Origin: Planctomycetales bacterium 10988
GTDB taxonomy: Bacteria > Planctomycetota > Planctomycetia > Pirellulales > Pb10988
DNA length: 64,000 nucleotides
NCBI GenBank assembly: GCA_009664345.1
Contig: CP043547.1
Coordinates: 6,414,709 to 6,478,708 of the forward strand
Reading direction: 5' to 3'
Positions 3,691-55,946 of the stretch are shown one piece after another (position 1 is the first letter of the stretch; each line of letters opens with the position of its first letter). The position numbers were made by a program, and so were the translations under genes. Under the pieces are notes generated by a model. It did no database searches, had not been told where the DNA came from, and worked only from the letters and a program-made list of their open reading frames with translations.

Positions 3691-5103
3691 TTAGAGAAGA
3701 TGGCGGGCCTTGATATCAAGATATTGATTCACCAGCGGGGCCGTCAAATCATCGGGAAAGACATCGAGGCACAAGACCCCTTTCGCCTCCAAATCCCGCA
3801 AGATTTGATGCCGCCAAAGGAGGATCGAAGCCGCCGCCGCGGCATTGTAAAGTTGCCCACCAACAGGCTTGGGATGATCCGCCATTTCAAAAATCCGACG
3901 GTCGCGAAGAAGGACCCCCATCGGCAAATGACGGCCCGAAAGCGAGCCCAGGTATTGCTCGACCTGATTGCCATTCACTTCATCAATCACGTTGGTCATC
4001 AACACAACAAGCGAACGCTTTTTGCAATGTGTCCCAAGATAAAGGAAGGCCCGATCATACCGGCTTTCGACCATTTGCGGAAAACGATCAAAAGATTCAT
4101 GGAGCAAGCGGTTCATGTGTAGACGCCCACTCGCCGGCGGAACATACCCATGTATCCGGTCGGAAAAGGTGAGCAACCCGACTTGATCGCCATGCCCGAG
4201 GGCCACATAGCTCAACATCAACATCGCGTTGAAGGAGTGATCTAGAAGACTCAAGCGGGCGGCTTCATTCGTCATCATCCGACCACAATCGACGAGGAAG
4301 ATGATTCGCTGACTCTGCTCGGTCTGAAAGTCCTTGACCGTAAGCTTGCCGCGTCGGGCGGTACTTCGCCAATCAATGTGACGGTAATTATCGTCTCTAG
4401 TGTAATCGCGAAGCCGTTCAAACTCGTTATCTCCACCAACGCGACGCGTGCGACGCACCCCCATCAAACTCAAGCGGTTCATCCGGGCGAGCATGGCATA
4501 TTGCGAAACTTGCTTCAGATCAGGATAAACATGCACGGTGTTTTGCAGAGGATAATTATAGAATCGTTGCCACAACAGCCACGGACTCGTACAGGCAACA
4601 TGGACCGATTCCAATTGAAAAGCACCTCGGCGAACTGATCGAAGTTCATAACTCAGTTGCGTGCGACTTCGAGGATCAAGCCAAAACTGAAACTCCTCCA
4701 CCGTGGGATTCAGCTCTTGGGGAACATCATCTCGCACACGAATTTGACGGCGTCGATTGCCTAAATAACTGACCACCAAACGAACAGGATGCGGTTTCTG
4801 CAAGGACGCCGTTTTCACCATCTGCCGCTCGATTTGAAACCTCGTTTTTCGCGGCAAGCGGAGCAAGTCGATCAATGCCACCAGAGCGACGAGTCCATCG
4901 AGCGACCATAGGACGGGATAAAACGAGTTAAGCAGAGATTCCGCTGACAGAGTATAAAAGATAATGGAAATCAGCGACAAGGCAGCGGGTGCCAACAACA
5001 ATAGAACCAAGGGGGCACGCGGATAGACCCGAAAACGTGCCAATAGCAAGAGTGGCAGAACGAGGCAACCAATTTGAATAAGGAACCAAGCCAAGTTTGT
5101 CAC
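3691..5103 (-). CDS. DUF58 domain protein
   Basis: The 470-residue protein has two N-terminal membrane helices (about residues 5-50 and 60-80), a beta-rich middle part, and the DUF58 signature near residues 230-250 (RDYTRDDNYRHIDWRSTAR), followed by a von Willebrand A-like strand IIFLVDCGRMM near 270. DUF58 proteins normally work with MoxR ATPases in envelope-linked assembly or regulation. The start codon is GTG and overlaps the moxR stop codon (GTGA), a sign of translational coupling with the ATPase gene upstream. The exact substrate is unknown. Confidence 0.92.
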   Translation of the reverse strand: MTNLAWFLIQIGCLVLPLLLLARFRVYPRAPLVLLLLAPAALSLISIIFYTLSAESLLNSFYPVLWSLDGLVALVALIDLLRLPRKTRFQIERQMVKTASLQKPHPVRLVVSYLGNRRRQIRVRDDVPQELNPTVEEFQFWLDPRSRTQLSYELRSVRRGAFQLESVHVACTSPWLLWQRFYNYPLQNTVHVYPDLKQVSQYAMLARMNRLSLMGVRRTRRVGGDNEFERLRDYTRDDNYRHIDWRSTARRGKLTVKDFQTEQSQRIIFLVDCGRMMTNEAARLSLLDHSFNAMLMLSYVALGHGDQVGLLTFSDRIHGYVPPASGRLHMNRLLHESFDRFPQMVESRYDRAFLYLGTHCKKRSLVVLMTNVIDEVNGNQVEQYLGSLSGRHLPMGVLLRDRRIFEMADHPKPVGGQLYNAAAAASILLWRHQILRDLEAKGVLCLDVFPDDLTAPLVNQYLDIKARHLL

Positions 5104-6149
5104 AGTCGGGGGACCTCTACCGTGCGAGCCATTTCGGTCAAGATTTCGTCCACTTGCCGACCTTCAACTTCGGCTTCCGGGGTCAAAATGACACGGTGTC
5201 GAAGTGCCGGCAGAAGCAAGGTCGAGACATCATCGGGCACCGCATAATCCCGTCCATGAAACGCTGCCAAGGTCCGTGCTCCTTGCAAAAGCGAGATGCT
5301 TGCCCGCGGGGAAGCCCCCATAAAGAATTGTGGCCATTCCCGCGTTAGCCGCACTAAGCGATTAATATAATCGATCAGCTTTTGATCAAGGCGAACTTGC
5401 TTGCAACGTTCCATTACCATCAAGATGCGATCTGGGCTAGTCACCGTTTGCACTTCTTTTTCCAACTTTTGATAAATCGATTCCCCTCGGGCATGGAGAG
5501 CCAGAATCTCGGCCTCTTCCGCTTGGCTAGGATACTCGACTTTCAGCTTAAACATAAACCGATCGAGTTGGGCCTCAGGCAGATTGTAGGTTCCTTCGGA
5601 TTCGATGGGGTTCTGCGTCGCCATTACCAAGAACGGTTGTTCAAGGACATGACTCGTCCCTTCGACGGTGACGCGATACTCTTGCATAATCTCCAAGAGG
5701 GCCGCATGGGTCTTGGCGGGCGAACGGTTGATTTCATCCGCCAAAAGCAACTGCGTAAAGACCGGGCCGGGCCGAAAGCGGAACTCTTGCTCTTTCATAT
5801 CGAAGACCGGAGCCCCGGTGATATCCGAAGGCATTAAGTCCGCCGTGAACTGAATGCGTCCGAACTTACAGCCAAGAATTTGGCCCAAAGTTCGCACAAA
5901 CAAAGTTTTCCCCAAGCCAGGTACCGACTCGATCAAGACATGCCCGTTGGAGAGCAAAGAGACCAAAGTGGCCAAGATCAGTTCATCTTGCCCCACATAC
6001 ACCTTGTGGATTTCGTGATTCACGCGTTCAAAAAACTTCTTCACCGGACCCATATTGGGAGAGGTCGAAGCGGCCTCTGCCGCCGGTTGATCGGAAGAAG
6101 GGAACATCGAAGGGTTCGCGACCGGATTGGATTCAGACTCGGGATTCAT
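5100..6149 (-). CDS. MoxR-family AAA+ ATPase
   Basis: The 349-residue product carries a Walker A loop (PGLGKT, near residue 78), Walker B (LLLADEINR, near 135), and the MoxR-type continuation SPAKTHAALLEIMQE, TQNPIESEGTYNLPEAQLDRF (sensor 1 region, split here into TQNPIESEG and LPEAQLDRF) and a C-terminal lid domain. MoxR ATPases act as chaperone-like partners of VWA/DUF58 proteins. The gene overlaps the DUF58 gene by four bases. Upstream, a MITE-like insertion lies between this gene and the DUF4350 gene of the same strand, so transcription of moxR may depend on reading through that element or on a promoter in the gap. Confidence 0.95.
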   Translation of the reverse strand: MNPESESNPVANPSMFPSSDQPAAEAASTSPNMGPVKKFFERVNHEIHKVYVGQDELILATLVSLLSNGHVLIESVPGLGKTLFVRTLGQILGCKFGRIQFTADLMPSDITGAPVFDMKEQEFRFRPGPVFTQLLLADEINRSPAKTHAALLEIMQEYRVTVEGTSHVLEQPFLVMATQNPIESEGTYNLPEAQLDRFMFKLKVEYPSQAEEAEILALHARGESIYQKLEKEVQTVTSPDRILMVMERCKQVRLDQKLIDYINRLVRLTREWPQFFMGASPRASISLLQGARTLAAFHGRDYAVPDDVSTLLLPALRHRVILTPEAEVEGRQVDEILTEMARTVEVPRL

Positions 6150-6406
6150 ACAAATTTGCCAAGTACTTTGCGGAAGGCGGATGCCTTAGAACAACTGCTT
6201 CTTGAAAACCACTCGACGCGGCGGACGTTCGCTTTTCAGAAGTAGAAGTCCTCTTGAATAGGTTTGGATTCCGTTAGTGGGGAATGGTTTTACTTTAGCT
6301 ACTCTTTCCAAAACAAGAAAGCCGCTAGAGACAACTTGACCAAGAAAAGAATCGGGAATCTATGGTTTTGGATAGCCTTCGCCACCTTTTCTCTTGAGCA
6401 AGGTTC
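6150..6406. other. Gap upstream of moxR
   Basis: No ORF of substance. It holds an AGTACT-centred site (CCAAGTACTTTG, 6159-6170) close to the moxR start. The rest of the gap to the DUF4350 stop is a MITE-like element listed separately. A moxR promoter may lie here, but I see no convincing boxes. Confidence 0.4.
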
Positions 6407-6409
6407 TTA

Positions 6410-6488
6410 GAGTTTGTGGTCAAATGTAAATTGAGACTTATCTTTTCCCGGTGTTTACCTGTTTCTGAATGGTTTTGACCACTGGCTC
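6410..6488. mobile_element. MITE-like element 1 (79 bp)
   Basis: The left end GAGTTTGTGGTCAAA and the right end TTTTGACCACTGGCTC are inverted copies of each other and match the termini of the IS5-like element at 36319-37209. TTA flanks both sides (6407-6409 and 6489-6491). The right TTA is the complement of the TAA stop codon of the DUF4350 gene, so the insertion restored that stop. It has no coding capacity and was presumably mobilised in trans. Confidence 0.85.
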
Positions 6489-7814
6489 TTAGGATTTTCG
6501 CCAGAGTTCCTCCTCTTCATCCCCTGGAATTTGCACGCGGTCAAAGGGAGAAGGTTCGCGTTTGGGTTGCTTCGGCAAGGGATCGGGGATCGCCGGTTCG
6601 TCGGAATCTTCAGTAGGAAGGGGTTCAAACTCCCGATCTTTATGAAAGGTCTGACGATAATGATAGAGTCGCTGCTGGGCATAACCCGTCTTTTCAGCAC
6701 GTCGCAAGAGGTCGCCGATGGCCTTCACGTGACGCCCAAAATCGGTGAGGCTCGCCTCTTCTTCCTTTCGCGGACGTCCAAAGATTGGCCAACGTGAAAA
6801 GATGAAAAAGATACCAACGAGAGCAATCTGCATAAAAATCAAATCAAGAGGCGGCTCGCTGAAAAAGGACCAACTCTGCTGAACTTCCGGAGGCGTCGAG
6901 CGATCACGAATGGTCAATCCACCAGCACCGCTTTCCAAGAAGACTGCCGTTGTCGGTTGATCCTTTCGAAGTCGTTCAATCTCATCCAAAAGTCGAGTGG
7001 CTAACTCGCGATTTGTGGAGTTCACCAGAGGAAGATTCAAGAGAAACGAACCGTTACTAACGAGAATGAGATGACTCTTGCCCCCTTCGAAAGTTTGATA
7101 GCTCACACGACTGACGATCACCTCCCCATCCAGGGCCAGCAACACCTCGGCATCGAGCGGCGGAATCATCTTTCGATCTGCCACTACATGTAAATCTTTG
7201 GGCAAAAGGCCCTTGGTCCATTCTTGACTTCCTCGCAAATAATTTTGAGCAATCGGGTCGCCAATTGGCCTTCCGGAAGGGAGACTTGTGTACCAAGGAT
7301 TGATCTCTTCCTTAGGTACACCTTTCAAGAGGGAATCATAATAGATCCGATCCTGTGCCCGCCGGTATTCCATTTCACTACGGACATTCTGCCTTTGTGC
7401 AGGAATCATCGGGATGGCTTGTGACCAGTACGATTCCGCCGCATCATAGGAACGCCCGACATAGACCATCACTCGGTCATCTTTTTCTGTCAGCCAATCT
7501 TCGAACCATTCGATCTCTCTCTCGGATGGGGAAATGAGTCGGTCAGGAAACCACAGAAAACAATCGCCGCGTTCCTGCAAGCGAGGAGTTACCTCATCCC
7601 GAGTCGTCACCGTAAAAGACGGATCGCTTCGCATCAGGGTTTGGAAGATCGTATTGCCATTGACACTGGTGCCCTGCATCCACTTAGCATAACCCGTCGG
7701 AAGAACCTCATCGCAGCCGACTAAGAAAAGGGAACAACCTAGCAATAACCATCCCCACCAAGCGCGGAAGCTCGGCTTTGCAAGTGGCTGATTGTTTTTG
7801 TTCGTAAAAAGCAT
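6489..7814 (-). CDS. DUF4350 domain lipoprotein/membrane protein
   Basis: The 441-residue product starts with a signal sequence ending in a lipobox-like LFLVGC (Cys near residue 34), followed by a DUF4350-type domain (pattern FTVTTRDEVTPRLQERGDCFLWFPD near 70-95) and a C-terminal membrane helix (around 325-345, FMQIALVGIFFIFSRW) with a charged cytoplasmic tail. DUF4350 proteins are regularly encoded between DUF4129 and MoxR genes, as here. The stop codon coincides with the target duplication of MITE-like element 1. The role is unknown. Confidence 0.85.
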   Translation of the reverse strand: MLFTNKNNQPLAKPSFRAWWGWLLLGCSLFLVGCDEVLPTGYAKWMQGTSVNGNTIFQTLMRSDPSFTVTTRDEVTPRLQERGDCFLWFPDRLISPSEREIEWFEDWLTEKDDRVMVYVGRSYDAAESYWSQAIPMIPAQRQNVRSEMEYRRAQDRIYYDSLLKGVPKEEINPWYTSLPSGRPIGDPIAQNYLRGSQEWTKGLLPKDLHVVADRKMIPPLDAEVLLALDGEVIVSRVSYQTFEGGKSHLILVSNGSFLLNLPLVNSTNRELATRLLDEIERLRKDQPTTAVFLESGAGGLTIRDRSTPPEVQQSWSFFSEPPLDLIFMQIALVGIFFIFSRWPIFGRPRKEEEASLTDFGRHVKAIGDLLRRAEKTGYAQQRLYHYRQTFHKDREFEPLPTEDSDEPAIPDPLPKQPKREPSPFDRVQIPGDEEEELWRKS

Positions 7815-23309: not shown

Positions 23310-23731
23310 GATGCAAGTTCTCCATTATTTAGTTGGGCTATCAGTAATTCTTAGAGTTTGTGGGCAAAAGTTACCTGAGAGCCACTTTTTCCAAGTGACT
23401 AACTGTATTGCTCAGGCTTTGACCACTGGCTCTTAGTTTCAAGTTGCGTCTCTGTGAGGTTTATAGCGTGGTCAATCGCATTGACAATAACGGTTTTCCC
23501 GCAATTTTTCTAAATCATCCCTTCTTATCCGCTTTTCTCTGATGAGCCCTCCCTTCTCATTTCCTGACGGTTCATCCTCGGGAAGAGAATTTTGAGATCG
23601 GTTGTTTTCCTACTACCGAAATTCTCTGATAGTTGCCAATGTACGGAAGCTTCGACTAACATATGTCGATTGATTGATGAATTAATCAAACCAGAAAACT
23701 ATGGAAGCATCTCATTTCGTGAAGGGGTAAA
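23310..23731. other. Gap upstream of second sulfatase
   Basis: It contains MITE-like element 3 (23354-23432) and the presumed promoters of the divergent DUF421 and sulfatase genes. I see no further ORF or clear promoter boxes. Confidence 0.4.
23354..23432. mobile_element. MITE-like element 3 (79 bp)
   Basis: The left end GAGTTTGTGGGCAAAAG and right end CTTTGACCACTGGCTC pair as inverted repeats, flanked by TTA on both sides (23351-23353, 23433-23435). The length equals that of elements 1 and 2, and its interior can be aligned without gaps to element 1. Confidence 0.85.
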
Positions 23732-36160: not shown

Positions 36161-36352
36161 GGAAATAGAAACACTTAGTATAAAAAGGAGCTCGAAGACG
36201 TAAATTAGTCAATATATCCGGCTGGCTCATCATAGTGCTCAAATGCCGAGTACTCGTCCTCAAACCAACCAAGAAACTTCCATGAAGTATAATCCAATAT
36301 GGGAGTAGAAAAGACTTAGAGCCTGTGGTCAAAACTGCTTTTTGAGTTGTTT

Positions 36353-36790
36353 CTAGGTGATCATCGCACAGGCGAGGGTGACAAAAACTTCGTACATCGA
36401 GGCTCGGCGTTCCCGGCGGGTGCCGACGCGGCGATGCTGTTTCAGCCACGAAATCGTCCGTTCCACCGGCCAGCGTTGTCGCCCCAGGCCGGTCTCCGAT
36501 GCTTGGCCGCGTTGTGGTATTTCTGCTTCGATGCCACAGCCTTCCAGCAAATTCAACAACGCCCCAGAGGTGTAACCGGCATCCGCCCGAACCCGTTTGG
36601 GCTTGGTGGGCGGTCGACCTGCCACGCCACCGAGACGAGGAAACTGCCCAAGCGAAAGAGGCAACAAGAAGCCGAGATCATGTTCATTCGCCGCCGAGAC
36701 CTGCACCGCCAGCGGGACGCCTTGGAAGTCGGTCATGACATTCAGTTTGCTGCCACTGCGGCCTCGGTCGGTCGGGTTGGGGCCGCATTT
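36353..36790 (-). CDS. Transposase orfB (DDE catalytic part)
   Basis: This frame, read after a -1 shift from orfA, contains the rest of the catalytic domain: the second Asp in VRADAGYTSGAL and the Glu of the C-terminal VERTISWLKQHRRVGTRRE. The reading frame is open to 37102, but only the part after the shift matches the family. It runs to the terminal repeat on the left side. Activity depends on the frameshift being made by the ribosome. Confidence 0.88.
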   Translation of the reverse strand, partial: KCGPNPTDRGRSGSKLNVMTDFQGVPLAVQVSAANEHDLGFLLPLSLGQFPRLGGVAGRPPTKPKRVRADAGYTSGALLNLLEGCGIEAEIPQRGQASETGLGRQRWPVERTISWLKQHRRVGTRRERRASMYEVFVTLACAMIT

Positions 36791-37131
36791 TCGCCTCCGC
36801 AAGGGGCTTTGACGAGCCCGCCGTCGATCAGCACTTCGGCCAGATCGAGGCCTCCGGCAGCCCGGAGTCGGGTGAGCAGTCGATGAGCGATCGCCTCGAA
36901 CAGTCCGAGGGCCTTCCATTCGTTGAGCCGCCGACGGACCGTCTTCTCGCTGGCCCCCAGTTCGGTGGGAAGCTCTCGCCAGCCGATGCCGGTCTTGCAC
37001 AGAAAGAGCACGCAGGTGAAGACCGTGCGGTTGTCCACCGGAGGCCGTCCGCCCTTGTGAGAACGTCGATAGGTCGGAAAGAGTGGTCCGATCTCCGTCC
37101 ATAGTTCATCTGTCAAAAGTCTGCCAGCCAT
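36742..37131 (-). CDS. Transposase orfA
   Basis: Starts at ATG 37131 behind GGAGGGG and gives 129 residues: a helix-turn-helix/DUF4096-type domain (LLTDELWTEIGPLFP, PVDNRTVFTCVLFLCKTG, GWRELP) and the first catalytic Asp in VLIDGGLVKAPCGGE. It ends in TGA at 36742. The frame changes to orfB by a -1 step at the AAAA run (top-strand TTTT, 36788-36791), after GGE, to give GGEKCGPNPTDRG, the family sequence. Confidence 0.88.
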   Translation of the reverse strand: MAGRLLTDELWTEIGPLFPTYRRSHKGGRPPVDNRTVFTCVLFLCKTGIGWRELPTELGASEKTVRRRLNEWKALGLFEAIAHRLLTRLRAAGGLDLAEVLIDGGLVKAPCGGENAAPTRPTEAAVAAN

Positions 37132-37237
37132 GCGAGTCCCCTCCGTGGAAAAAAAGGTCATTCTCCACATTCCGAGAAATTCGCAAAGATCAGTTTTGAC
37201 CACAGGCTCTTAGTGTTGTTCGATCGAGGCAGTAAAA

Positions 37238-47595: not shown

Positions 47596-49221
47596 TTAGC
47601 GAATGCTGCCTTCGACGGCTTTTTTCTCAGCGTCATGATCATCGAAGTTGGTGACCAGGCATTCGGTGGTCAAAAGCAATGCGGAAATACTGGCGGCATT
47701 GCTAAGAGCCGAACGAGTCACTTTCAACGGATCGACGATGCCTGCTTGAAGCATGTCGGTGTAGACACTGGCGTTGGCGTCATAACCTTCGTTGCCGGTG
47801 GTTTGACGAACGTTGTCGACCACGACGGAACCATCATCGTTGCCGCAGTTGTCCGCAATTTGTTTGAGCGGAGCACTCAAGGCATTGAGAACGATACGGG
47901 CACCGACGGCTTCATCGCCATCGAGTTCTTCGACCAACTTTTCGATTTCTTGTTCGCAACGAATGTAAGCAACGCCACCACCGGGCAAGATGCCTTCTTC
48001 CACCGCGGCTCGGGTGGCATGAAGGGTATCTTCGACACGGCCTTTGGTTTGCTTCATGTCGGCTTCGGTATGAGCCCCGACGGAGATCACCGCGACGCCG
48101 CCGGTCAATTTGGCGAGGCGTTCTTGGAATTTCTCTTTGTCATATTCGCTATCGGTTTGTTCGATCTGTTTGCGAATTTGGGCGATGCGGGCCTCTAAAG
48201 CTTCGCTGCTGCCGGCCCCTTCAACGAGGGTGCAGCTATTTTTGTCAACCTGGACGGTTTTGACACGACCGAGGTGCGACAAAGTGAGGCTTTCAAGTTT
48301 GATGCCGAGGTCTTCGCTGATCATGGTGCCTTCGGTGAGGACGGCAATGTCACCCAACATGGCTTTACGACGATCGCCGAAACCAGGGGCTTTGACCGCA
48401 CAGCAGTTCAAAACGCCACGAAGACGGTTGACGACCAGAGCAGTCAAGGCTTCGCCTTCGACATCTTCGGCGATGACCAACAGCGGCTTGCCTGCTTGGC
48501 TGACCTGTTCAAGGATCGGCACAAATTCACGCAAGTTGCTGATCTTCTTTTCGTGAATCAAGACGTAAGCGTCTTCGAGTTCACAAGTCATATCGGCAGG
48601 CTTGTTGACGAAGTAAGGCGAAAGATAACCTTTATCGAACTGCATCCCTTCGACGAGTTCGAGAGTGGTTTCCGTTCCCTTGCCTTCTTCAACGGTGACG
48701 ACGCCATCTTTGCCGACTTTTTCCAAAGCATCGGCCATCAGTTGACCAATTTCTTTGTCGTTGTTGGCACTGATGGTTCCGATCTGGGCAACTTCTTCTT
48801 TGCTGCTGATCGGCTTGGCGATGCTCTTGAGATATTCGATGGCTCGTTCGGTGGCTTTTTCGATTCCACGACGAATGGCCATCGGGTTGGAACCCGCGGT
48901 GATGGTGCGAATACCTTCTTTGAAGATCGCACGAGCCATCACGGTGGCGGTGGTCGTTCCGTCGCCGGCGATGTCGGAAGTTTTGCTAGCAACTTCGTTA
49001 ACCAACTTGGCGCCCATGTTTTCGAATGGGTCTTCCAGTTCGACTTCTTTACTGACGGTGACGCCATCTTTGGTCACGGAGGGACCGCCGAAGGACTTAT
49101 TAATAATGACATTGCGACCCGTGGGCCCCATGGTGACCGCCACGGCATTGGCAAGTTGATCGACGCCGCGAAGCATTTTGTCGCGGGCACGATCGTCAAA
49201 CAAAATCTGTTTGGCCGACAT
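47596..49221 (-). CDS. groEL: Chaperonin GroEL, second copy without Gly/Met tail
   Basis: The 541-residue product has the GroEL pattern ([41 protein letters not shown] in part, [16 protein letters not shown]) and closes with [17 protein letters not shown], lacking the GGM repeats of the first copy. GAAGG precedes the ATG. It lies 79 bases after groES. Paralogues with divergent tails often differ in clients or assembly; that is an inference here. Confidence 0.95.
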
Positions 49222-49300
49222 ATTACCTTCTCTTATGTTTTGAGTTAATGTTGTGAACCATTGTCAGTTCGCTGAAAGTTAAGGCTTCAGCGGGAGAAAA

Positions 49301-49594
49301 CTAGGCGCTGACGACTTTGGCGAGGATATCCGATTCACGCAAAATCTTGATGTCTTTGCCTTCGGCTTCCAGATCGGTGCCGGAGTATTTGCCGTAAAGG
49401 ACTTCATCACCAACAGCGACGGAGAGTTCGCCACGGTTGCCATTATCGAGAAGTTTGCCGGGACCCACGGAGATCACGCGGCCACGTTGGGGCTTTTCTC
49501 GGGCGGCTTCGGGAAGGACAATCCCGCCAGCGGTACGTTCTTCGGCTTCGACAGGTTCGACAACAACGCGGTCATCTAAAGGATTAATTGGCAT
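49301..49594 (-). CDS. groES: Co-chaperonin GroES
   Basis: The 97-residue product has the GroES pattern ([25 protein letters not shown], shown in part as [12 protein letters not shown]) and [13 protein letters not shown]. It closes the GroEL cavity. It lies between the two groEL genes. A gapped palindrome variant AAAATGTACTTTTT (49607-49620) lies just upstream of its start. Confidence 0.96.
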
Positions 49595-49670
49595 TCTTCG
49601 TTTCCTAAAATGTACTTTTTATAAAAGAGTGTTGATTGAATCGTATGAAAGGGTGCGAGTCGGGAACAGT

Positions 49671-51374
49671 TTACATCATGCCGGGCATGCCCATTCCACC
49701 CATGCCTCCCATTCCCATACCACCCATGCCGCCCATTCCTCCCATACCACCGCCCATGCCGTGGTCATGGTGATGGCCGCCGTCTTCGTCTTCTTCGACC
49801 GGAATATCGCAGATCAGCGATTCGGTCGTCAAAAGCAAGGCAGCGACACTCGCAGCATTTTGCAAGGCGGTTCGCACGACTTTGGCAGGATCGACAACCC
49901 CGGCTTCGAGGAGATCGCCATATTCGTGCTTGTCGGCGTTGTAGCCTTCATTGCCGGAAAGCTTGCGGACGCGATTAACAACAACCTTGCCATCGATCCC
50001 AGCGTTTTCGGCAATACTGCGGAGTGGGTATTCCAAAACTTTGCGAATGATGCGGGCCCCAGCAGCTTCATCGCCAGGAAGTTCAAGCGAATCTAAAGCG
50101 GATTCACAACGGAGTAAGGCGACCCCACCACCGGGGACAACGCCTTCTTCCAACGCGGCTTGCGTGGCGGCTTTGGCATCGTCAATCAAAGCTTTTCGCT
50201 CTTTCATTTCCGATTCGGTCACGGCACCGCAGTTGATTTGAGCAACCCCACCGGCGAGCTTGGCCAGGCGTTCTTGCAATTTTTCGCGGTCGTAATCGCT
50301 ATCGGTTTCTTCGATTTCCGCACGAATTTGGTTGGCACGACCTTGGATTTTTTCGGTCGAACCGCCTCCTTTGACCACCGTGGTATCTTCGCTGGTGATG
50401 ATGATCTTTTCAGCGGTACCGAGGTTGGAAAGTTGGACATTGTCCAGTTTGATGCCGAGGTCTTTGAAGATCGCCGTGGCATCGGTGAGGACGGCCAAGT
50501 CTTCCATCATCGCTTTGCGTCGATCACCATAGCCGGGAGCTTTCACAGCGGAAGCTTTAATAATGCCTCGCATGTTGTTCACAACGAGGGTCGCCAAGGC
50601 TTCGCCTTCCACGTCTTCGGCGATGATCAACAGCGGACGATTTTGCTTGCTGACCATTTCCAAAACGGGAACGAGCGGTTTGACCGAGGTGATTTTCTCT
50701 TCGAAGATCAAGATCAGGGGATTTTCCAGTTCACAGACTTGGTTGTCTTGATCGGTGACGAAGTGCGGGGAAAGGTAACCGCGATCGAATTGCATCCCTT
50801 CGACGACTTCGACGGTCGTTTCCATTTGTCGGCCTTCTTCGACGGTAATGACGCCGTCTTTTCCGACTTTCAGGAAGGCATCCGCCAAGACGCGACCGAT
50901 TTCCGGATCATTGTTTCCGGCGATGGTGGCGACTTGTTCGATCTCTTTACGGCTTTCAGAATCGATCGGTTTGGCGACCGACTTCAATTGCTCGATCACA
51001 GCTTCAACGGCTTTGTGAATGCCGCGAGAAAGTGCCATCGGATCGGCACCGGCGGCGACCATTTTCAGGCCTTCTTTGAAGATCGCTTCCGAAAGGACGG
51101 TTGCCGTGGTAGTTCCGTCACCGGCCACGTCGTTGGTTTTGCTGGCGGCTTCTTTGACCAGTTGGACGCCGAGGTTTTCATACGGATCATCGAGTTCGAT
51201 ATCTTCCGCAACGGTCACGCCGTCTTTGGTGACTTTCGGGGACCCCCACCCCTTGTCGAGCACCGCGTTGCGACCTCGGGGCCCAAGCGTGCTACGCACC
51301 GCCCGAGCAAGTTTGGAGACGCCACTGGCGAGTGCCTGGCGAGCGTCATCATCAAAAATCATTTGTTTTGCCAC
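49671..51374 (-). CDS. groEL: Chaperonin GroEL, copy with His/Gly/Met-rich tail
   Basis: The 567-residue product starts with GTG behind AGGAGG ([15 protein letters not shown]) and has all GroEL motifs ([48 protein letters not shown]). Its tail carries GHHHDHGMG followed by repeated GGM units (about 35 residues). It is first in the groEL-groES-groEL2 block. GGM tails are usual; the His cluster GHHHDH is not and could bind metal. Confidence 0.96.
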
Positions 51375-55596: not shown

Positions 55597-55946
55597 TATG
55601 TACCTACTTCCATCATACCAGCACTAGCTATATCAATAAGAGAATCTTCACACTATAGAACAGGCTCCTCTAATTGGGGAGTTGAATTAATACAGAGACT
55701 CTCATTTCTACCAATCTGAGTAATTATGACATTTTTTGAGGAATCATAACAAAGAAATAAAGCAGGCGACTTTTCGCTTGGACTTGACGTAAGCGTTTTT
55801 GGGAGACAAACTAACGTGTCCTCCAGCGATTTTCCCCTGAGTGTTTTTAAGAGTGCGTGGTCAAAGGTATTCGAGAGCCGATATTTCCAAGCGTTCACCG
55901 ATTGTTGAGAGGTTTTGGCCACTACTTCTAAGAGTTTGAGGCGTGC
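55597..55946. other. Gap with a possible gene remnant and a MITE
   Basis: Downstream of 55850 lies MITE-like element 4. Between 55653 and about 55850 the minus strand holds an open frame (LKTLRGKSLEDTLVCLPK, ending in LEEPVL) that could be the end of a gene cut by that insertion; it has no start of its own. Confidence 0.35.
55851..55928. mobile_element. MITE-like element 4 (78 bp)
   Basis: The left end GAGTGCGTGGTCAAAGG and right end GGTTTTGGCCACTACTTC pair as inverted repeats, flanked by TAA on both sides (55848-55850, 55929-55931). It ends 18 bases before the start codon of the zinc-ribbon membrane protein gene, so it may carry that gene's leader. Confidence 0.82.

What the first reader, a model, noticed from the sequence alone, without database searches (positions are those of the whole stretch)
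6407..6491. MITE insertion exactly on a stop codon inside an operon
The right TTA duplication of the element at 6410-6488 is also the complement of the TAA stop codon of the DUF4350 gene, so the insertion regenerated the stop. The element now separates DUF4350 from moxR in an otherwise tightly spaced row, which may alter expression of moxR and DUF58.
Basis: seen in the sequence. Interest (0 to 1): 0.55.

Follow-up and report, generated by a model that had tools for sequence, protein, structure and literature searches.

The report
MITE inserted on a stop codon
A short non-coding jumping sequence, present in well over a hundred copies in this planctomycete genome, landed exactly on the stop codon of one gene in a conserved gene row without changing the protein; it looks like an ordinary MITE whose preferred landing word happens to be a stop codon.

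Summary
A 79-bp element (6410-6488) is flanked by TTA (6407-6409, 6489-6491), and the right TTA is the TAA stop of the DUF4350-like gene. It belongs to a MITE family with at least 174 diverged copies in the 35% of the genome read; none was found in a filtered search of 145 other genomes of the order. Its ends and TTA/TAA duplications resemble those of an IS5-family insertion sequence (about 15 near-full copies, one at 36319-37209), the likely transposase source.

Two corrections. The stop was not regenerated: it was the target, since the rebuilt empty site already ends in TAA. And the element explains only 82 of the 339 bp between DUF4350 and moxR.

The coincidence recurs: in 13 of 174 copies a gene's stop codon sits exactly at the left duplication (7 of these with TAA on both sides), inside pairs such as glutamate synthase, two-component and ABC genes. 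Target preference predicts 3.0-4.4 among 144 usable copies; 11 were seen, a modest excess (p 0.001-0.04 by assumption). No promoter or terminator signal and little evidence for a selected hairpin were found; a strong effect on moxR seems unlikely but is unmeasured. Repeats at stop codons are already described (pneumococcal BOX).

The parts
6410..6488 (-). MITE copy, 79 bp; on the gene strand it reads GAGCCAGTGGTCAAAACC...TTTGACCACAAACTC
   Evidence: 78 of 84 columns match the family consensus
6489..6491 (-). target duplication (TTA on +, TAA on -) that is also the stop codon of the DUF4350-like gene
6407..6409 (-). second copy of the target duplication (TTA on +, TAA on -)
6489..7814 (-). DUF4350-like protein gene (441 aa), ends at the element
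   Evidence: Pfam E 1.5e-4, below the curated cut-off
5100..6149 (-). moxR-type AAA ATPase gene downstream
3691..5103 (-). DUF58 gene, overlaps the moxR end by 4 bases
6150..6406 (-). 257 bp of non-coding DNA between the element and moxR, not explained by the MITE
   Evidence: in the own genome only itself matches below E 0.1; no promoter-like site
36319..37209 (-). IS5-family insertion sequence, 891 bp, both ends GAGCCTGTGGTCAAAACTG, TTA duplications at 36316-36318 and 37210-37212; likely source of the transposase (inferred)
36742..37203 (-). transposase, first reading frame (DUF4096)
36353..37102 (-). transposase, second reading frame (DDE domain), overlapping the first in another frame, as for a programmed frameshift (inferred)
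23354..23432 (-). further MITE copy, TAA/TAA
21897..21975 (-). diverged MITE copy, CAA/TAA
   Evidence: E 5.7e-5
55851..55928 (-). further MITE copy, TTA/TTA

Best explanation
A non-autonomous miniature transposon, probably moved in trans by the genome's IS5-family transposase, inserted at a TNA target (best word C-TAA-R) and duplicated three bases. Here the target was the DUF4350 stop codon, so the protein is unchanged and one TAA now lies on each side of the element. Because the preferred word is itself a stop codon, and insertions at stops or between genes do little harm, such coincidences recur through target preference plus purifying selection. The element is probably close to neutral: it adds 82 nt with a modest hairpin between DUF4350 and moxR. 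Shown: the family, the duplications, the stop in the rebuilt empty site, the recurrence, no match in the relatives searched. Inferred: the transposase source, purifying selection, near-neutrality.
For: At least 174 copies; none found in 145 other genomes of the order, strict filters, at most 30 candidates scored each. Duplications TAA/TAA 45 and TTA/TTA 17 of 152 copies with both ends. IS copies share the GAG and GTGGTCAAAA of the MITE ends and carry TAA/TAA (4) or TTA/TTA (2) in 6 of 11 examined. In 13 of 174 copies the stop is exactly at the left duplication. Among 144 copies with both ends and outside called genes, 11 sit on a stop against 3.0-4.4 expected from target preference. The gene pairs split by such copies are real: glutamate synthase and a Pyr_redox_2/Fer4_20 protein, response regulator and histidine kinase, ABC and ABC, PSD1 and DUF1501.
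Against: The excess over target preference is not fully explained: binomial p 0.0014 or 0.0065 (two weightings), Poisson 0.005, 0.043 if the expectation is raised to 6 to allow for uncalled genes. All 11 are in one orientation; 1.4-2.3 were expected in the other and 0 seen. Only 7 of the 13 stop copies have matching TAA/TAA, and only 71 of 152 duplications match at all three bases. The MITE ends differ from the IS ends outside GAG and GTGGTCAAAA and the interiors were not seen to match, so the IS may be only a relative of the true parent. None of 11 IS copies examined had an ORF of 60 or more codons ending at the duplication; one had 70 open codons ending four bases further on.
Confidence: 0.85

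Rival explanations
1. The element was kept because it works at the RNA level: its hairpin after a stop codon ends, processes or stabilises transcripts and so sets the DUF4350/moxR ratio.
For: The 101-nt transcript strand folds at -19.1 kcal/mol, z -2.48, 2 of 200 shuffles as good. Excess at stops, all in one orientation. Two of 13 arm pairs (z 4.1, 3.0) and two of six internal-hairpin pairs (40-48 z 5.7, 38-50 z 3.5) pair more often than shuffles.
Against: No terminator-like site at the element (that scan allows loops of 3-8 only). 11 of 13 arm pairs have z below 2, and the two better ones rest on 4 and 5 compensated cells; column 48 covaries at least as strongly with columns it cannot be stacked with, such as 21, which points to subfamilies. 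Copies are depleted between convergent genes: 8 of 163 against 14.6% of intergenic bases. Between codirectional genes the two orientations are 42 and 50.
Confidence: 0.12
2. The element alters moxR/DUF58 expression by supplying an outward promoter: both ends carry an outward TTGACC, like a -35 box.
For: TTGACC faces outward at both ends (sequence).
Against: No promoter-like site in 5900-6700. Over 144 copies, -10-like hexamers at the offsets that fit (8-10 bases from the end) occur in 0-2% of copies; the higher values at offsets 0-2 are the TAA duplication itself.
Confidence: 0.04
3. The insertion created the stop and shortened the DUF4350-like protein.
For: At four other stop copies the far duplication is GAA, so there the stop could be secondary: 4 of 11 stop copies against 3 of 52 other left-TAA copies, p 0.014.
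Against: In the window copy both duplications are TAA, so the rebuilt element-free site ends in the same codon.
Confidence: 0.04

Closest known systems
BOX repeats of Streptococcus pneumoniae (PMC3049150, passages read)
   Same: Small interspersed repeats; of 58 CDSs overlapping BOX, in 36 the repeat lies at the extreme 3' end and encodes the stop codon, without strong evidence of truncation.
   Different: There the repeat encodes the stop and its ends are likened to ISSpn2; here the stop is the target duplication and the ends point to an IS5-family element.
QMITE2 of Coxiella burnetii (PMC5896051, passages read)
   Same: A MITE at the 3' end of a gene, with a stop immediately before it in one strain.
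   Different: There an in-frame extension in one strain and an indel in the other; here the protein is unchanged. Not compared by sequence.
Tourist-like MITEs of plant PIF/Harbinger elements (PMC2213677, passages read)
   Same: 3-bp TTA/TAA duplications and a transposase described there as similar to that of bacterial IS5.
   Different: Plant elements; a likeness of mechanism, not compared by sequence.
IS5-family insertion sequences (DUF4096 + DDE_Tnp_1; IS427-like by recall)
   Same: GAG and GTGGTCAAAA in the ends and TTA/TAA duplications, in this same genome.
   Different: The MITE carries no gene, and its arms differ from each other and from the IS at several end positions.

Membership tests
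MITE | short, no transposase gene, many dispersed copies | tested here: met
   79 bp; at least 174 copies, 9 of 174 inside called genes
MITE | terminal inverted repeats | tested here: met
   conserved ends across 152 copies
MITE | target-site duplication | tested here: met
   TAA/TAA 45 and TTA/TTA 17 of 152; in all 71 of 152 match at three bases, 81 do not
MITE | ends shared with an autonomous element in the same genome | tested here: inconclusive
   GAG, GTGGTCAAAA and duplications shared with the IS5-family element, other end bases differ; 11 sampled loci of other DUF4096 groups lack paired such ends
MITE | mobility in trans | not testable with these tools
   the 38 relatives offered are all 'same order' only, so no presence/absence between close strains
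IS5-family IS (window 36319-37209) | IS4/5-type DDE transposase | tested here: met
   DUF4096 and DDE_Tnp_1 above cut-off
IS5-family IS (window 36319-37209) | inverted ends with short TNA-type duplication (feature by recall) | tested here: met
   window copy TTA/TTA; 6 of 11 copies examined match
intrinsic terminator | G+C-rich short-loop hairpin followed by a T run | tested here: not met
   no such site at 6407-6491

The most novel reading that the evidence does not exclude
The family is a stop-codon-seeking MITE: its target word C-TAA-R and the orientation in which it joins direct it to TAA stops, many inside operons, a safe haven where insertion spares both genes, beyond what base preference alone gives.
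Probability: 0.2. Interest if true: 0.5.

Novelty: new member of a known kind. Interest (0 to 1): 0.27.

Why it matters
It shows in one genome how a 3-bp target preference that spells a stop codon can let a MITE settle inside gene rows without changing proteins. With about 174 copies the pull of target preference can be weighed against selection. The single locus by itself is ordinary.

Tried and rejected
RNA family: no Rfam match at gathering threshold in the window. Consensus structure of 29 copies gave 9 pairs at -2.14 kcal/mol, not the arm duplex. Covariation on 152 copies: see rival 1. Outward promoters: no excess at the fitting offsets. Other DUF4096 transposon groups as parent: 11 loci of those groups sampled, of 30 DUF4096 loci fetched, lack paired matching ends. 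A second element in 6150-6406: no repeat found. IS on plasmids: only 11% of the query at about 75% in three Streptomyces records. DUF4350 protein in named genomes: none confirmed, so moxR was used and whole-genome relatives. A codon-only gene caller missed clear genes and was replaced.

Limits: gene calls are home-made (1662 genes, 79% coding) with longest-ORF starts. 2.34 of 6.65 Mb were read, chosen around copies. Matches with E above 1e-4 and overlapping ones were dropped (179 to 174); 22 of 174 copies lacking an end were left out of the duplication counts; stop statistics used 144 of 174 (both ends, outside called genes), which is why 11, not 13, stop copies enter them; with matching duplications only, 6 of 67 against 2.0 expected. 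The script on IS duplications failed after 11 of 15 copies.

Literature: searches (terms, not sequences) listed nothing that names this family; I saw listings and passages of four papers (PMC3049150; PMC5658596, nothing relevant; PMC5896051; PMC2213677), no whole text.

Full report
What is there. The window copy is a 79-bp sequence at 6410-6488 with inverted ends and TTA on both sides. On the gene strand it reads TAA-GAGCCAGTGGTCAAAACC...TTTGACCACAAACTC-TAA. The first TAA is the stop codon of the 441-aa DUF4350-like gene. The window lies in a 6.65-Mb single-contig genome; the 38 relatives offered are all 'same order' only, and the best moxR relatives with named records are Planctomycetota, Pirellulales among them.

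A MITE family. The element matches 41 places in its own genome with 40 of 160 candidates scored and 150 with a sequence model capped at 150 of 2380 candidates. In 2.34 Mb fetched around those places an iterated profile gives 174 copies at E<=1e-4, four of them in the window. Copies are diverged: median pairwise identity 67.5% in 3000 random pairs, median nearest-neighbour identity 82.5%, and the ends are better conserved than the middle. Duplications are TAA/TAA in 45 and TTA/TTA in 17 of 152 copies with both ends; 71 of 152 match at all three bases, 81 do not. The target leans to C before and A/G, A, A after the triplet. In a search of 146 genomes of the order, with strict filters and at most 30 candidates scored per genome, only the own genome matched.

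Likely mobiliser. The window also holds an 891-bp IS5-family element, 36319-37209, with DUF4096 and DDE_Tnp_1 frames. It has about 15 near-full copies in the genome, ends GAGCCTGTGGTCAAAACTG and TTA or TAA duplications that match on both sides in 6 of 11 copies examined. The MITE ends share GAG and GTGGTCAAAA and the kind of duplication. That this transposase moves the MITE is inferred.

Stop codon. The element-free site rebuilt from the flanks ends ...AAA TCC TAA: the stop was the target and is preserved, not regenerated. The case is not unique. Of 174 copies, 52 have a gene 3' end as left neighbour, and in 13 of these the stop codon is exactly at the left duplication; in 2 more it overlaps the first base of the element. 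On the right side 58 have a gene 3' end, 0 exactly at the duplication and 4 overlapping by one base. Of the 13, 7 have TAA on both sides, 4 TAA/GAA, 1 TAA/TAT and 1 TAG/AAG; 10 of 13 lie between codirectional genes and 3 between convergent ones. Nine of the other 12 upstream genes were scanned and eight have Pfam domains. Of six downstream genes scanned, five have domains: a Pyr_redox_2/Fer4_20 protein after glutamate synthase (gltB/gltD by recall), a histidine kinase after a response regulator, an ABC ATPase after an ABC ATPase, DUF1501 after PSD1, and an STN protein after a kinase. The PSD1 match is partial (positions 2-125 of 244), so that gene may be shortened.

More than target preference? 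Using 144 copies with both ends and outside called genes, 11 sit on a stop; a target model from the other copies expects 4.3-4.4 over all intergenic DNA, and with matching duplications only 2.0 against 6 of 67 seen. Against sites 3-150 bp downstream of stops in the same orientation it expects 3.0 (triplet and flanks) or 3.8 (triplet only). Binomial p is 0.0014 and 0.0065, Poisson 0.005, and 0.043 if the expectation is raised to 6. In the other orientation 1.4-2.3 were expected and 0 seen. The excess is modest and depends on my gene calls.

Effect on the row. DUF4350 and moxR are neighbours in 36 of 80 relatives' loci examined, at least three of the 36 being second copies of a locus; in 34 of 36 the gap to the first ATG is 182 bp or less, one of these being an overlap of 364 that is probably spurious, and two gaps are 269 and 558. 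Here the gap is 339 bp, 82 from the element; the other 257 bp match nothing else in the genome below E 0.1 and carry no promoter-like site. The transcript of the element folds somewhat better than shuffles (z -2.48). There is no terminator-like site at the element, no hybrid-promoter signal at the fitting offsets, and copies are rare between convergent genes (8 of 163). Covariation is mixed: 11 of 13 arm pairs show none to speak of, two do weakly, and two of six internal pairs do (z 5.7 and 3.5), which I put down to subfamilies without a tree to prove it. The element also sits inside other gene pairs, so strong polarity is unlikely. This was not measured.

Known or new. Repeats supplying or abutting stop codons are described for BOX (passages of PMC3049150) and QMITE2 (passages of PMC5896051). 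TTA/TAA duplications with an IS5-like transposase are described for plant PIF/Harbinger elements and their Tourist MITEs (passages of PMC2213677). I take this as a new family of a known kind.

Noticed in passing
own genome (G000), MITE copies: Duplications often differ only in the first base (CAA/TAA 9, GAA/TAA 9, TAA/GAA 7, TAA/CAA 2 of 152), as if that base were partly supplied by the element or altered at insertion.
   Followed up: partly
own genome (G000), MITE copies: Copies are rare between convergent genes: 8 of 163 against 14.6% of intergenic bases, p 1.3e-4.
   Followed up: partly
G000:C1:3518281-3518359 (in L182): One copy lies where the stops of two convergent genes meet: TAA on one strand at one end, a TAG on the other strand at the other end.
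   Followed up: partly
window 6150-6406: 257 bp of non-coding DNA before moxR, longer than the gap in most relatives examined, with no promoter-like site found.
   Followed up: partly
G000:C1 near 495920, 661071, 991613, 3276372: IS copies share one flank with each other but not the other, suggesting rearrangement or duplication between IS copies.
   Followed up: no
window 47878-51233: Two related stretches about 2150 bp apart (71-75% identical), probably paralogous genes.
   Followed up: no
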